Positions 6,351 through 61,731 of a DNA stretch of 64,000 bases are shown here, in pieces (within the stretch, counting starts at the first letter, position 1; each line of letters opens with the position of its first letter). The notes beneath the pieces were generated by a model. It was not told the origin of the DNA. It made no database searches and saw only the letters and a list, made by a program, of their open reading frames with translations. The stretch lies in NCBI RefSeq assembly GCF_937958655.1, contig NZ_CALGNH010000025.1, forward strand, positions 95,622-159,621. The letters are read 5' to 3'. The position numbers were made by a program, and so were the translations under genes. This DNA comes from an uncultured Winogradskyella sp. GTDB taxonomy: Bacteria; Bacteroidota; Bacteroidia; Flavobacteriales; Flavobacteriaceae.

Positions 6351-7817
6351 ATGTCCCTAAAACAATTTTTACAATTTAAACTTTCTCAAAAGCTATCTCC
6401 GCAGCAGATACAGCTTATGAAGCTGATTCAACTACCTACACAGGCTTTTGAACAACGTTTAAAGCAAGAGTTAGAAGAAAACCCAGCCTTAGATACTGGT
6501 AAGGAAGCTGATGCATCAGATGATAATTTAGACGAGTTTGACAACAGCTCTGATGATTTTAATGACAACGAAACCATAGATGCCGATGATATTAATGTAG
6601 ACGAGTATTTAAGCGACGATGAAATACCAGATTACCGCACACATGCCAATAATTACAGTGCTGACGATGACGAGAAGAGTGTGCCTTATGCAGCAGGAAC
6701 CTCGTTTACGCAACATTTAACCAATCAATTAAATACGTTTAGACTCTCTGAACAAGACGAAGAAATTGCTTATTTCTTAGTAGGTAGTGTAGATGAAAGC
6801 GGTTATATACGTCGGTCTTTATCTGATATTACAGATGATTTAGCCTTTACACAAAATGTGTATACAACCGAAGAGGAAGTAGAAAAAGTTCTCGAAGTTG
6901 TACATCAGTTAGATCCTGCTGGTGTGGGTGCAAGAAATCTACAAGAGTGCTTAAGTATTCAGTTAAATAGAAAAGAACAAAATCCCGATGTTGAGTTAGC
7001 TTCTAATATTATAAACAAGGCCTTTGAACAATTTACTAAGAAACACTATGAAAAATTGATGCATAAATTTAGCATCAACGAAGCGCAACTTAGAGACGCC
7101 ATAGAAGAAATAGAACGTTTAAACCCTAAACCAGGTGGGTCTTACGCTGGTAATAATAAAATTGTGGAACATATAGTTCCAGATTTTGCTATTAAGATTG
7201 TAGATGGCGAATTAACACTTACTCTAAATGGGCGTAACGCACCAGAGCTTCATGTTTCTAGGGAATATAACAACATGCTTAAGGGTTATAAAGACAGTAA
7301 ACAAAAGTCTAAAGCACAAAAGGATGCTGTACTATTTATAAAGCAAAAGCTAGACGCAGCCAAGTGGTTTATCGAGGCGGTGAGACAACGTCAACAAACA
7401 TTATTTGTAACCATGAGTTCTATAATGCATTATCAAAAAGACTATTTTTTAACTGGTGATGAGCGGAAGCTAAGACCAATGATTCTTAAAGATATTGCAG
7501 ACGAAATAGAAATGGATGTATCTACAGTATCGCGTGTTGCTAACAGTAAATACGTGGATACGCCTTATGGTACAAAACTTATAAAAGAATTTTTCTCTGA
7601 GTCCATGACCAATGACCAAGGTGAAGAGGTATCTACCCGAGAAATAAAGAAAATTTTGGAAACCGTAATTGAATACGAAAACAAAAAGAAACCTTTAACT
7701 GACGAGGCCTTATCCAAAATTTTAAAAGACAAAGGCTATCCAATAGCAAGACGAACTGTTGCTAAGTATAGAGAACAGTTAGATATTCCTGTAGCGAGAT
7801 TAAGGAAAGAACTTTAG
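6351..7817 (+). CDS. rpoN: RNA polymerase sigma-54 factor
   Basis: The 488-residue protein shows the full sigma-54 layout. Region I is Gln/Leu-rich (residues 1-45, LSPQQIQLMKLIQLPTQAF), region II is strongly acidic (50-110), and the core-binding domain spans about 115-310. A helix-turn-helix is near 375-400 (DIADEIEMDVSTVSRVAN), and the RpoN box ARRTVAKYRE lies at residues 466-475, where it contacts the -24 element. It directs RNA polymerase to -24/-12 promoters and depends on AAA+ activators; none of those activators is in this window. Twelve bases separate it from the next gene, so the two are probably co-transcribed. Confidence 0.96.
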   Translation: MSLKQFLQFKLSQKLSPQQIQLMKLIQLPTQAFEQRLKQELEENPALDTGKEADASDDNLDEFDNSSDDFNDNETIDADDINVDEYLSDDEIPDYRTHANNYSADDDEKSVPYAAGTSFTQHLTNQLNTFRLSEQDEEIAYFLVGSVDESGYIRRSLSDITDDLAFTQNVYTTEEEVEKVLEVVHQLDPAGVGARNLQECLSIQLNRKEQNPDVELASNIINKAFEQFTKKHYEKLMHKFSINEAQLRDAIEEIERLNPKPGGSYAGNNKIVEHIVPDFAIKIVDGELTLTLNGRNAPELHVSREYNNMLKGYKDSKQKSKAQKDAVLFIKQKLDAAKWFIEAVRQRQQTLFVTMSSIMHYQKDYFLTGDERKLRPMILKDIADEIEMDVSTVSRVANSKYVDTPYGTKLIKEFFSESMTNDQGEEVSTREIKKILETVIEYENKKKPLTDEALSKILKDKGYPIARRTVAKYREQLDIPVARLRKEL

Positions 7818-61034: not shown

Positions 61035-61056
61035 AGTACCTTGGGTGGGAATCGAA

Positions 61057-61076
61057 CCTGCCTGACGGTAGGCTGG
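61057..61076. repeat. 20-bp palindromic insertion in the T arm of copy A
   Basis: CCTGCCTGACGGTAGGCTGG; its halves are reverse complements with three mismatches. Removing 20 bases restores the intact T arm seen in copy B exactly. Confidence 0.85.
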
Positions 61077-61115
61077 CCCACACTTCCGAAGAAACTGGAT
61101 TTTGAATCCAGCACG

Positions 61116-61135
61116 CCTGCCTGTCGACAGACAGG
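61116..61135. repeat. 20-bp palindromic insertion in the D arm of copy A
   Basis: CCTGCCTGTCGACAGACAGG; its halves are reverse complements with one mismatch. It sits at the same tRNA position as the insertion in copy C. Confidence 0.85.
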
Positions 61136-61190
61136 TCTACACGCATTAGCTTAACTCTTACTTATAAAAAAAACAATGCCGTTAGGTTAG

Positions 61191-61272
61191 TACCTTGGGT
61201 GGGAATCGAACCCACACTTCCGAAGAAACTGGATTTTGAATCCAGCGCGTCTACCAATTCCGCCACCAAGGC
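61191..61272 (-). tRNA. tRNA-Leu(CAA), intact copy B
   Basis: On the minus strand 5'-GCCTTGG and CCAAGGT pair (last pair G-U), discriminator A. The D arm is GCGGAATTGGTAGACGC, the anticodon arm CTGGATTCAAAATCCAG has anticodon CAA (reads UUG), the variable arm TTTCTTCGGAAGT is a class II arm, and the T arm is GTGGGTTCGATTCCCAC. No CCA is encoded. The stop codon of the GIY-YIG gene occupies the three bases directly before its first base, so the two must be on one primary transcript. Confidence 0.95.
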
Positions 61273-61521
61273 TTATTTATTATCTCTAATCTGTCTTAGT
61301 TTCTCCTTACCAATTCCAGATTTCCAATATTTCTCTCTCGATCTTGCGTCTTGCCTAGATCCTTTTATAGTTTCACTATAAATCAGTTCAAAAGGTCTAT
61401 ACGCTCTAGTTGTTTTTTCTCTACCTGAATGATGTCTTAAAACTCTATCATCAATGTTCTCTGTCATACCAACATAGATATAGTTTCGTTTTAGACTTGA
61501 AATCGCGTAAACATAAAACAT
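61273..61521 (-). CDS. GIY-YIG nuclease family protein, abutting tRNA-Leu
   Basis: The 82-residue single-domain protein has the GIY-equivalent YVYAI (3-7) and YIG-equivalent YIYVG (14-18). Other conserved residues are Arg in DDRVLRHHSG (24-33), Tyr in YRPFELIYSE (41-50) and the catalytic Glu in REKYWKSG (62-69, Glu63). This is the short stand-alone form (URI/SLX1-like) without a DNA-specificity domain. It lies between truncated tRNA-Leu copy C and intact copy B, with no base between its TAA and the tRNA. RNase P cleavage would leave the mRNA ending at its stop codon. Confidence 0.9.
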   Translation of the reverse strand: MFYVYAISSLKRNYIYVGMTENIDDRVLRHHSGREKTTRAYRPFELIYSETIKGSRQDARSREKYWKSGIGKEKLRQIRDNK

Positions 61522-61543
61522 ATTAAGAACTTAATCTTCCCTG

Positions 61544-61590
61544 CGCGCCTGCCTGTCGGCAGACAGGTCTACCAATTCCGCCACTTGAGC
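61544..61590 (-). pseudogene. tRNA-Leu copy C: 5' fragment with a 20-bp palindromic insertion
   Basis: On the minus strand it begins GCTCAAG TG GCGGAATTGGTAGAC, the 5' half of a tRNA-Leu up to the end of the D loop, then a 20-bp insertion, then GCGC, after which the sequence no longer matches a tRNA and runs into the GIY-YIG gene. Its acceptor arm differs from B (GCTCAAG, not GCCTTGG), so it came from a different tRNA-Leu isoacceptor. No CTTGAGC 3' partner was found nearby. Confidence 0.8.
61548..61567. repeat. 20-bp palindromic insertion in copy C
   Basis: CCTGCCTGTCGGCAGACAGG, two mismatches between halves. It has the same position in the D arm as in copy A. Confidence 0.85.
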
Positions 61591-61602
61591 AATAATGGAC
61601 AA

Positions 61603-61610
61603 CAAAAATA
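61603..61610 (-). promoter_or_regulatory. -7 box of the tRNA-Leu C / GIY-YIG / tRNA-Leu B unit
   Basis: On the minus strand TATTTTTG matches TAnnTTTG, 13 bases before copy C. An upstream TTTTTG ends 23 bases before it. It is the only promoter seen before the intact tRNA, which has none of its own. Confidence 0.6.
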
Positions 61611-61652
61611 GAAAATATTTTTTGCCAACACACCAAAAATACATAGGTTTTA

Positions 61653-61660
61653 TACTTTTG
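61653..61660 (+). promoter_or_regulatory. -7 box of the prs promoter
   Basis: TACTTTTG matches TAnnTTTG. The start codon follows after a leader of about 70 bases with no evident structure. Confidence 0.5.
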
Positions 61661-61731
61661 CGATTAAATATTTTTCTAAATTTGACACGGTCTAAAGCAC
61701 AACTATACAACCTTAATTAATTTTTATTCCT

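What the first reader, a model, noticed from the sequence alone, without database searches (positions are those of the whole stretch)
61037..61590. tRNA-Leu cluster with exactly 20-bp palindromic insertions at fixed tRNA positions
Three tRNA-Leu relics lie within 560 bp: intact copy B, 3' copy A and 5' copy C. A and C carry a 20-bp palindrome at the same D-arm site (after TAGAC), and A has another of exactly 20 bp in the T arm. Removing the inserts restores tRNA sequence exactly. The three palindromes share CCTGCCTG-type half-sites, so they belong to one family of short mobile palindromes, comparable in idea to the Rickettsia palindromic elements, which insert in genes. If A or C is expressed, each insert would form an extra hairpin in the tRNA. 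Pseudogene decay is simpler, but the repeated site and length suggest a specific insertion process.
Basis: partly seen in the sequence, partly recalled or inferred. Interest (0 to 1): 0.8.

Follow-up and report, generated by a model that had tools for sequence, protein, structure and literature searches.

The report
tRNA-hugging nuclease element with hairpin-tagged scraps
Many bacteria carry a tiny DNA-cutting-enzyme gene wedged against a tRNA gene and flanked by a broken copy of that same tRNA, usually with a short hairpin pushed into one of its arms; the window holds one example, and the pattern looks like a little-noticed family of selfish DNA.

Summary
An 82-aa GIY-YIG nuclease ORF (61273-61521, -) lies between 5' relic C and intact tRNA-Leu(CAA) B. 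Order on the - strand: promoter-like motif, C (tRNA nt 1-21, 20-bp palindrome, CGCGC), nuclease, B, relic A (palindromes in D- and T-arm), terminator-like hairpin. The same order (5' partial tRNA with D-arm hairpin, GIY-YIG ORF, tRNA) recurs in Bacteroidota and Patescibacteria. A mirror form (tRNA, ORF, 3' partial tRNA with T-arm hairpin) exists; A resembles its remnant. Seeking the nuclease alone: 82 of 395 genomes of the window's phylum match; 75 of 91 loci examined have an ARAGORN-called tRNA within 460 bp, nearest always on the same strand. Inserts differ in sequence and length (13-72 nt under my filter), so '20 bp' is not the rule; arm position is. Tandem arrays and ORF-less forms occur; 20 of 22 same-genus loci are empty. 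Best reading: a selfish, homing-endonuclease-like element at tRNA genes; the hairpin may spoil the nuclease's target in the scrap. Association shown; mobility and hairpin role inferred. Closest precedent: phage SegB. Nine open-access searches listed no description.

The parts
61603..61610 (-). promoter-like -7 motif TATTTTTG (Bacteroidota type, recalled) upstream of relic C
   Evidence: sequence; the same motif stands upstream of the single tRNA in most of the same-genus empty loci printed; inference
61543..61590 (-). relic C: 5' partial tRNA-Leu (nt 1-21 plus CGCGC) with a D-arm insert
   Evidence: (L216)
61548..61567 (-). 20-bp palindrome in the D-arm of C (CCTGTCTGCCGACAGGCAGG)
61273..61521 (-). 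GIY-YIG nuclease ORF, 82 aa, stop codon abuts tRNA B
   Evidence: PF01541, E 8.1e-14; Y5, Y16, G18, R26, H30, E63 invariant in 14 of 14 aligned proteins
61190..61272 (-). intact tRNA-Leu(CAA), copy B
61036..61140 (-). relic A: tRNA-Leu from the D-loop to the 3' end with two 20-bp inserts
61116..61135 (-). 20-bp palindrome in the D-arm of A
61057..61076 (-). 20-bp palindrome in the T-arm of A, breaking GTTCGATTC
   Evidence: same site in L240, L242/L308, L260, L212
61013..61034 (-). terminator-like inverted repeat AACCCAACATTACTGTTGGGTT downstream of A; a degenerate version follows B
   Evidence: sequence; direct repeat D3; inference

Best explanation
The cluster is one member of a widespread family of small selfish elements that live against tRNA genes. 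A unit consists of a truncated copy of the local tRNA gene, a hairpin-forming palindrome inside an arm of that copy, and an ~80-aa stand-alone GIY-YIG nuclease; it lies between the tRNA's control sequence and the complete tRNA (5' form, hairpin in the D-arm) or after the tRNA (3' form, hairpin in the T-arm). Proposed working: the nuclease cuts tRNA genes at a D-arm or T-arm sequence; repair from an element-bearing locus, or recombination between tRNA and unit, copies the unit in and duplicates part of the tRNA, so a complete tRNA remains; the hairpin spoils the target in the scrap. In the 5' form the nuclease would be transcribed from the tRNA promoter and the tRNA released by normal processing. 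Shown: architecture, same-strand linkage of nuclease and tRNA, hairpin in an arm, patchy presence, tandem copies, ORF-less forms, grouping of nuclease by tRNA type. Inferred: cutting, mobility, target protection, co-transcription. In the window C-nuclease-B is a 5'-form unit; B-A looks like a 3'-form remnant without ORF.
For: Same-genus genome G161 has the unit at the corresponding tRNA-Leu(CAA) locus beside a prs-like gene (gene name recalled) and, without ORF, at tRNA-Leu(TAG), each scrap matching its own tRNA; G102 and G019 (other genera) have it too. In 20 other same-genus genomes no scrap or ORF lies in the 110 nt printed before tRNA-Leu(CAA). Search by nuclease alone: 82 of 395 phylum genomes; of 91 loci examined 75 have a tRNA within 460 bp, the nearest on the same strand in 75 of 75; nine other GIY-YIG hits of the own genome (L040-L042, L044-L049): no tRNA in the fetched flanks. 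54 of 74 loci tested gave an insert passing the filter; 31 are in 5' forms (29 of 31 at nt 8-28, 14 of 31 at what I read as canonical 21/22); fold z median -2.3 against 0.2 for ORF controls. T-arm-side inserts break GTTCRANTC in 14 of 23, 5.6 expected. Nuclease tree groups by tRNA amino acid: 26 changes, shuffled mean 58.9, lowest 51 of 200. Tandem arrays, e.g. five copies at 450-bp period. TAnnTTTG within 45 nt upstream: scrap 14 of 35, tRNA 2 of 35. SegB, a phage GIY-YIG homing enzyme, cuts in tRNA genes, prefers RAWTSGAAC (my reading: the T-arm GTTCSAWTY reversed) and drives tandem amplification of tRNA plus segB (PMC13096335; outline, passages, sections 9 and 10).
Against: No cutting, movement or RNA was measured. 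The tRNA beside the nuclease still carries the presumed target, which a simple homing model does not explain. Hairpin positions vary inside the D-arm. 9 of 23 T-arm-side inserts lie outside the 9-mer by the automatic call (L240 and L241 look inside by eye, L246's insert letters resemble L240's); conversely two of the 14 inside (L261, L278) are ambiguous and L244's insert is not a hairpin; L294, among the 29 D-arm ones, is not a hairpin either. 20 of 74 loci gave no insert that passes, and scraps without hairpins were not counted systematically. Scraps were sought on the tRNA's strand only. Palindromes of the same family also lie far from tRNAs in some genomes (31 distinct sites), so the hairpin may come from an independent repeat. 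16 of the 91 nuclease loci show no ARAGORN tRNA (eight are weaker hits). Grouping by tRNA type is also expected from vertical inheritance; the tree has 78 columns and many open forks, and the query profile is Leu-heavy (non-Leu identities 0.459 against 0.423). The window protein has no match in 50,697 phage or 72,556 plasmid records, so a vehicle for spread is not seen. The C leader as a whole is not unusually stable as RNA (z -0.25).
Confidence: 0.6

Rival explanations
1. Independent short mobile palindromes (REP or MITE-like) that prefer hairpin-forming DNA land in tRNA arms; only insertions into redundant tRNA scraps survive, and the nuclease is a bystander.
For: The palindrome family is dispersed in some genomes: 31 forward matches in G680, 23 in G428, matches in 11 of 12 genomes searched. 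In G680 it sits inside the loop of another inverted repeat whose uninterrupted form is present (L312, L313, L322). Y1 transposase (PF01797) is present in 8 of 10 genomes searched, weakly in the own one.
Against: In G102 the only copy found in 4.3 Mb, in G161 2 of 3 and in the own genome 3 of 5 are in tRNA scraps. Inserts in scraps of different genomes are hairpins of unrelated sequence. G161 and G131 have no PF01797 match. Pairing of flanks over 31 dispersed sites is only weakly above permutation (9 of 200 as low).
Confidence: 0.2
2. A domesticated host unit: the hairpin-bearing 5' tRNA piece is an RNA leader that controls the nuclease or the maturation of the downstream tRNA.
For: ORF and nearest tRNA are on one strand in 75 of 75; promoter-like motif before the scrap more often than before the tRNA; palindrome with the same G-U pair in several Flavobacteriaceae.
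Against: Patchy presence, decay, loss of the ORF, tandem copies and mirror forms; no unusual fold of the leader; hairpin sequence and position not conserved.
Confidence: 0.12
3. Ordinary tandem duplication and decay of tRNA-Leu with chance palindromes.
For: A and C are truncated and could not work as tRNAs; tRNA genes do duplicate.
Against: Recurrence of the same architecture in many genera and several phyla, arm positions, hairpin enrichment and linkage to the same nuclease family.
Confidence: 0.04
4. Assembly artefact of repeat-rich contigs.
For: The own genome is in 93 contigs; many loci are metagenome-assembled.
Against: Nuclease-tRNA loci are seen in genomes listed as one contig (G131, G629, G680) and the unit in isolate genomes such as Galbibacter orientalis DSM 19592 (L101) and Robertkochia marina (L120).
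Confidence: 0.02

Closest known systems
SegB-type free-standing GIY-YIG homing endonucleases of T4-like phages
   Same: GIY-YIG nuclease next to tRNA genes; cuts inside tRNA genes, with a preferred motif that I read as the T-arm; tandem amplification of tRNA plus nuclease (PMC13096335; outline, passages, sections 9 and 10 seen)
   Different: SegB is in phages and no truncated hairpin-bearing tRNA copy is mentioned in the parts seen; here an ~80-aa domain alone, on chromosomes, with a recurrent partial-copy architecture; no sequence comparison with SegB was made
UPF0213 / SLX1-like small GIY-YIG proteins
   Same: closest solved structures by profile (1zg2, 1ywl, then SLX1 chains)
   Different: the Pfam family alone does not imply a tRNA neighbour: nine other GIY-YIG hits in the own genome have none in the fetched flanks
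REP sequences / RAYT systems
   Same: short GC-rich palindromes, sometimes dispersed
   Different: here concentrated in tRNA scraps in some genomes; Y1 transposase not found in two carriers
Rickettsia palindromic elements (recalled)
   Same: palindromic DNA inside genes
   Different: those sit in frame in protein genes and are longer (recalled); these are short inserts inside truncated tRNA copies
Integrative elements at tRNA genes (recalled)
   Same: part of the tRNA is duplicated while a complete tRNA remains
   Different: the only ORF seen in the ~300-bp unit is GIY-YIG; both 5' and 3' parts are used

Membership tests
GIY-YIG nuclease superfamily | GIY-YIG catalytic domain with its Tyr, Gly, Arg, Glu residues | tested here: met
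   PF01541 E 8.1e-14; Y5 Y16 G18 R26 H30 E63 invariant in 14 of 14; which of these are catalytic is recalled
SegB-type tRNA homing endonuclease | gene adjacent to tRNA genes | tested here: met
   75 of 91 nuclease loci have a tRNA within 460 bp, nearest on the same strand in 75 of 75
SegB-type tRNA homing endonuclease | cuts tRNA-gene DNA and drives homing or amplification | not testable with these tools
   needs an enzyme assay; tandem arrays fit
SegB-type tRNA homing endonuclease | sequence kinship with SegB | not tested
   no SegB sequence compared; the window protein has no match in the phage collection at E 1e-5 and none in PHROGs at E 0.001
REP/RAYT | resident Y1 transposase | tested here: inconclusive
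   match in 8 of 10 genomes, none in G161 and G131
Rickettsia palindromic elements | in-frame insertion in protein-coding genes (recalled) | tested here: not met
   the inserts studied are in tRNA copies
Group I or II intron in tRNA | intron ribozyme | tested here: not met
   Rfam scan of the window at gathering scores: two tRNAs only; inserts are 20 bp
tRNA-targeting integrative element | site-specific recombinase | tested here: not met
   the window unit holds one ORF of 60 aa or more on its strand between C and B, GIY-YIG

The most novel reading that the evidence does not exclude
A distinct class of minimal mobile element (about 300 bp, one ~80-aa nuclease) that colonises tRNA genes across Bacteroidota and Patescibacteria, leaves the tRNA working, and disarms its own left-over tRNA scrap by an active process that puts hairpins into tRNA arms, possibly with the nuclease or a partner recognising hairpin DNA.
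Probability: 0.3. Interest if true: 0.9.

Novelty: new variant of a known kind. Interest (0 to 1): 0.75.

Why it matters
About a fifth of the sampled genomes of the window's phylum (82 of 395) have a nuclease of this kind. If the reading is right, it is a selfish gene that rides on essential tRNA genes and, in the 5' form, on their transcription. It would extend tRNA-directed homing from phages to bacterial chromosomes, explain many odd truncated tRNA copies and tRNA turnover, and offer a short, testable system: does a hairpin inside a tRNA arm protect DNA from a tRNA-cutting nuclease?

Tried and rejected
Chance palindromes and plain decay: rejected by recurrence. Intron: none in the window's Rfam scan. 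RAYT-made REPs as sole cause: two carriers have no PF01797 match. Phage or plasmid carriage of the window protein: no match, though three IMG/VR contigs hold relatives. NCBIfam: no family. A unique RNA fold of the leader: not found. Dispersed palindromes sitting in hairpin loops in general: only weak support, 9 of 200 permutations as low; 47 sites were cut to 31 by removing near-identical flanks. The automatic insert finder (74 loci, L242 left out as a repeat of L308) misplaces some inserts and reports chance alignments; its 71 rows were cut to 54 by score, position and length before counting. Phylum label on the tree: no clustering when every named phylum is kept apart (36 rows, 12 changes against 13.0), some when pooled into three groups (15 against 22.2); too thin to settle transfer between phyla. 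Papers: nine searches in an open-access library; judged from listings and abstract starts, none describes this; some lists were longer than shown; subscription journals and preprints were not covered. The passages on tRNA in PMC1564403 say nothing on this. An earlier count said 15 tRNA-linked loci in the set; the recount gives 14 of 22.

Full report
What is there. Between relic C and the intact tRNA B lies an 82-aa ORF on the same strand whose stop codon abuts the first base of B; it is a GIY-YIG nuclease (PF01541, E 8.1e-14). The other seven GC-rich long-armed 20-mers of the window are unrelated in sequence, and the genome holds five places with the palindrome, three of them here and two on contig C73.

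Same locus in relatives. The pattern GGTAGA + palindrome + CG, with up to 2 mismatches, occurs in 4 of 149 family genomes, the own one included; G120's two matches are not in tRNAs. G102 and G019, of other genera, show beside a prs-like gene (name recalled): 5' partial tRNA, the same 20-mer as in C at the same site, six further tRNA bases, a GIY-YIG ORF, and a complete tRNA-Leu(CAA). Same-genus genome G161, found by the DNA search of 60 relatives, has the same unit and, at tRNA-Leu(TAG), the same 20-mer in a scrap of that tRNA with a short spacer and no ORF. In these four cases the scrap's acceptor strand is that of the local tRNA; in the window it is not. G161's contig has the length of a record titled uncultured Winogradskyella, which also carries the same sequence around the palindrome (L183), so the window's genus is probably that one (inference). 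In 20 other same-genus genomes no scrap or ORF lies in the 110 nt printed before tRNA-Leu(CAA): 2 of the 22 read are filled.

Wide scan. Of 123 matches, 52 have an ARAGORN same-strand tRNA within 800 bp whose D-arm matches the sequence before the palindrome (at least 7 of 8); 36 of these have a GIY-YIG ORF within 120 nt of the palindrome and 16 do not. Distances to the tRNA are 249-297 bp with ORF, except 337 and 650 (both in L101, a tandem pair), and 23-155 bp without. Four further stretches have the ORF but fail the tRNA test. The pattern demands GGNAGR before the palindrome, so site constancy here is partly built in. Targets are mostly tRNA-Leu (46 of 52), with Asn, Val and Lys; by record titles the hosts include Bacteroidota, many Patescibacteria and two Nitrospirae bins. 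In 24 of 51 non-duplicate cases the first nine bases of the scrap equal those of the neighbouring tRNA (1.8% in comparisons with other loci's tRNAs); in many of the 19 that do not match in register, a second hairpin lies between acceptor and D-arm or in the D-loop, with the acceptor still upstream.

Search by nuclease, blind to palindromes. A 14-protein profile finds 15 of 60 relatives at E 1e-12 and 82 of 395 phylum genomes at E 1e-18 (its match list was cut). I examined 91 loci: all 22 given, the 29 new loci given, and 40 stretches taken by place for further listed hits, one of them a second cut of the G629 array. 75 of 91 have an ARAGORN tRNA within 460 bp, the nearest on the same strand in 75 of 75; a few loci belong to the same array (L242/L308, L230/L236, L220/L232). 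Among the 16 without, eight are weaker hits, and the G680 array (L245, read as L348) has scraps and a tRNA remnant but no tRNA call. Over 155 different proteins, drawn also from the pattern loci, 124 have a tRNA label: Leu 62, Arg 17, Ser 15, Asn 6, Cys 6, Ala 4, Pro 4, Gly 3, Lys 2, Phe 2, Met 2, His 1. Nine other GIY-YIG hits of the own genome have no tRNA in their fetched flanks.

Two mirror forms. In the 5' form the scrap is the tRNA 5' part with a hairpin in the D-arm; in the 3' form the order is tRNA with terminator, ORF, 3' part with a hairpin in the T-arm, often followed by a copy of the terminator. The insert finder was run on 74 loci and gave 71 rows, of which 54 pass score, position and length filters: 31 in the 5' form, 29 of them at tRNA nt 8-28 (L294 among them is not a hairpin) and 14 at what I read as the canonical 21/22 boundary, the window and G161 included; 23 in the 3' form, 14 of which break the T-arm 9-mer GTTCRANTC where 5.6 are expected from the span (two of the 14, L261 and L278, are ambiguous). 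Inserts run from 13 to 72 nt, the upper end set by the filter, and differ in sequence, but fold better than ORF controls (median z -2.3 against 0.2; 70% against 11% below -1.5). Copy A's T-arm insert has the same place as in L240, L242 and L260, and as in relic L212 (a viral-collection contig); A therefore looks like a 3'-form scrap whose ORF is lost (inference).

Dynamics. Tandem units occur (five copies at a 450-bp period in G629, pairs or triplets in others). In Galbibacter (L101) two units are followed by a truncated tRNA-Leu whose 5' half equals the scrap and then by a different complete tRNA-Leu(CAA); in the window, B's acceptor also differs from the same-genus form while C keeps it. So tRNA replacement may happen at these loci. 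The nuclease tree (quick search, 78 columns, many open forks) groups by tRNA type: mean identity 0.503 for the same tRNA in different families, 0.418 for different tRNAs in different families, 0.423 for different tRNAs in one genome; without Leu the gap shrinks (0.459 against 0.423).

Mechanism. The nearest experimental precedent found is SegB of phage T6, a GIY-YIG homing enzyme that cuts inside tRNA genes, prefers the motif RAWTSGAAC (which I read as the T-arm GTTCSAWTY reversed), and is needed for tandem amplification of a tRNA-segB segment (PMC13096335: outline, passages and sections 9 and 10 read). The bacterial units look like the same logic on chromosomes: cutting at a D-arm or T-arm target, repair that copies the unit and duplicates part of the tRNA, and a scrap whose target is spoiled by a hairpin. 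The weak point is that the complete tRNA still has the target. The promoter-like motif TAnnTTTG stands within 45 nt before the scrap in 14 of 35 ORF-bearing loci and before the tRNA in 2 of 35, which suggests co-transcription of nuclease and tRNA in the 5' form.

Where the hairpins come from is open. The CCTGCCTG palindrome is a broader repeat family, dispersed in some genomes, at times inside the loop of another inverted repeat whose uninterrupted form exists in the same genome, but over 31 distinct dispersed sites the flanks pair only slightly better than permuted ones. Y1 transposases were not found in two of ten carriers. I therefore keep an independent mobile palindrome as the main rival.

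Novelty. Nine searches of the open-access library listed no description of this architecture; that is not proof of absence. I rate it a new variant of tRNA-associated GIY-YIG homing systems, with a fair chance that the hairpin tagging is something new.

Noticed in passing
L007 (G000:C73) 434-453 and 526-545: Two further copies of the same 20-mer outside any tRNA called by ARAGORN, both followed by CGC as in the D-arm scraps.
   Followed up: partly
L312 (G680:C1:660100-661800): Three tandem copies (121 bp apart) of the 20-mer set inside the loop of another inverted repeat; an uninterrupted relative lies beside it.
   Followed up: partly
L101 (Galbibacter orientalis) 6741-7220: Two units and a truncated tRNA-Leu are followed by a different complete tRNA-Leu(CAA), suggesting tRNA replacement at an element-bearing locus.
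   Followed up: no
window 61190-61272: The acceptor stem of tRNA-Leu(CAA) (GCCTTGG/CCAAGGT) differs on both strands from the same-genus form (GCTCAAG/CTTGAGT), whose 5' strand relic C keeps.
   Followed up: partly
L212/L237 (IMG/VR contig 3300028786_000154): A contig of the viral collection with a GIY-YIG relative and a tRNA relic bearing palindromes at the 5' side and in the T-arm, like copy A.
   Followed up: partly
L146 2922-3046: Two ORF-less units 99 bp apart before a tRNA-Leu(CAG) in a Giovannonibacteria genome: short, possibly non-autonomous forms.
   Followed up: no
L109 (Maribacter arenosus): The unit's nuclease reads YVR where the 14 aligned proteins have YVG or YKG, so it may be inactive.
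   Followed up: no
window 61531-61710 (-): The 59-aa ORF reads through the tRNA scrap and is probably not a gene.
   Followed up: no
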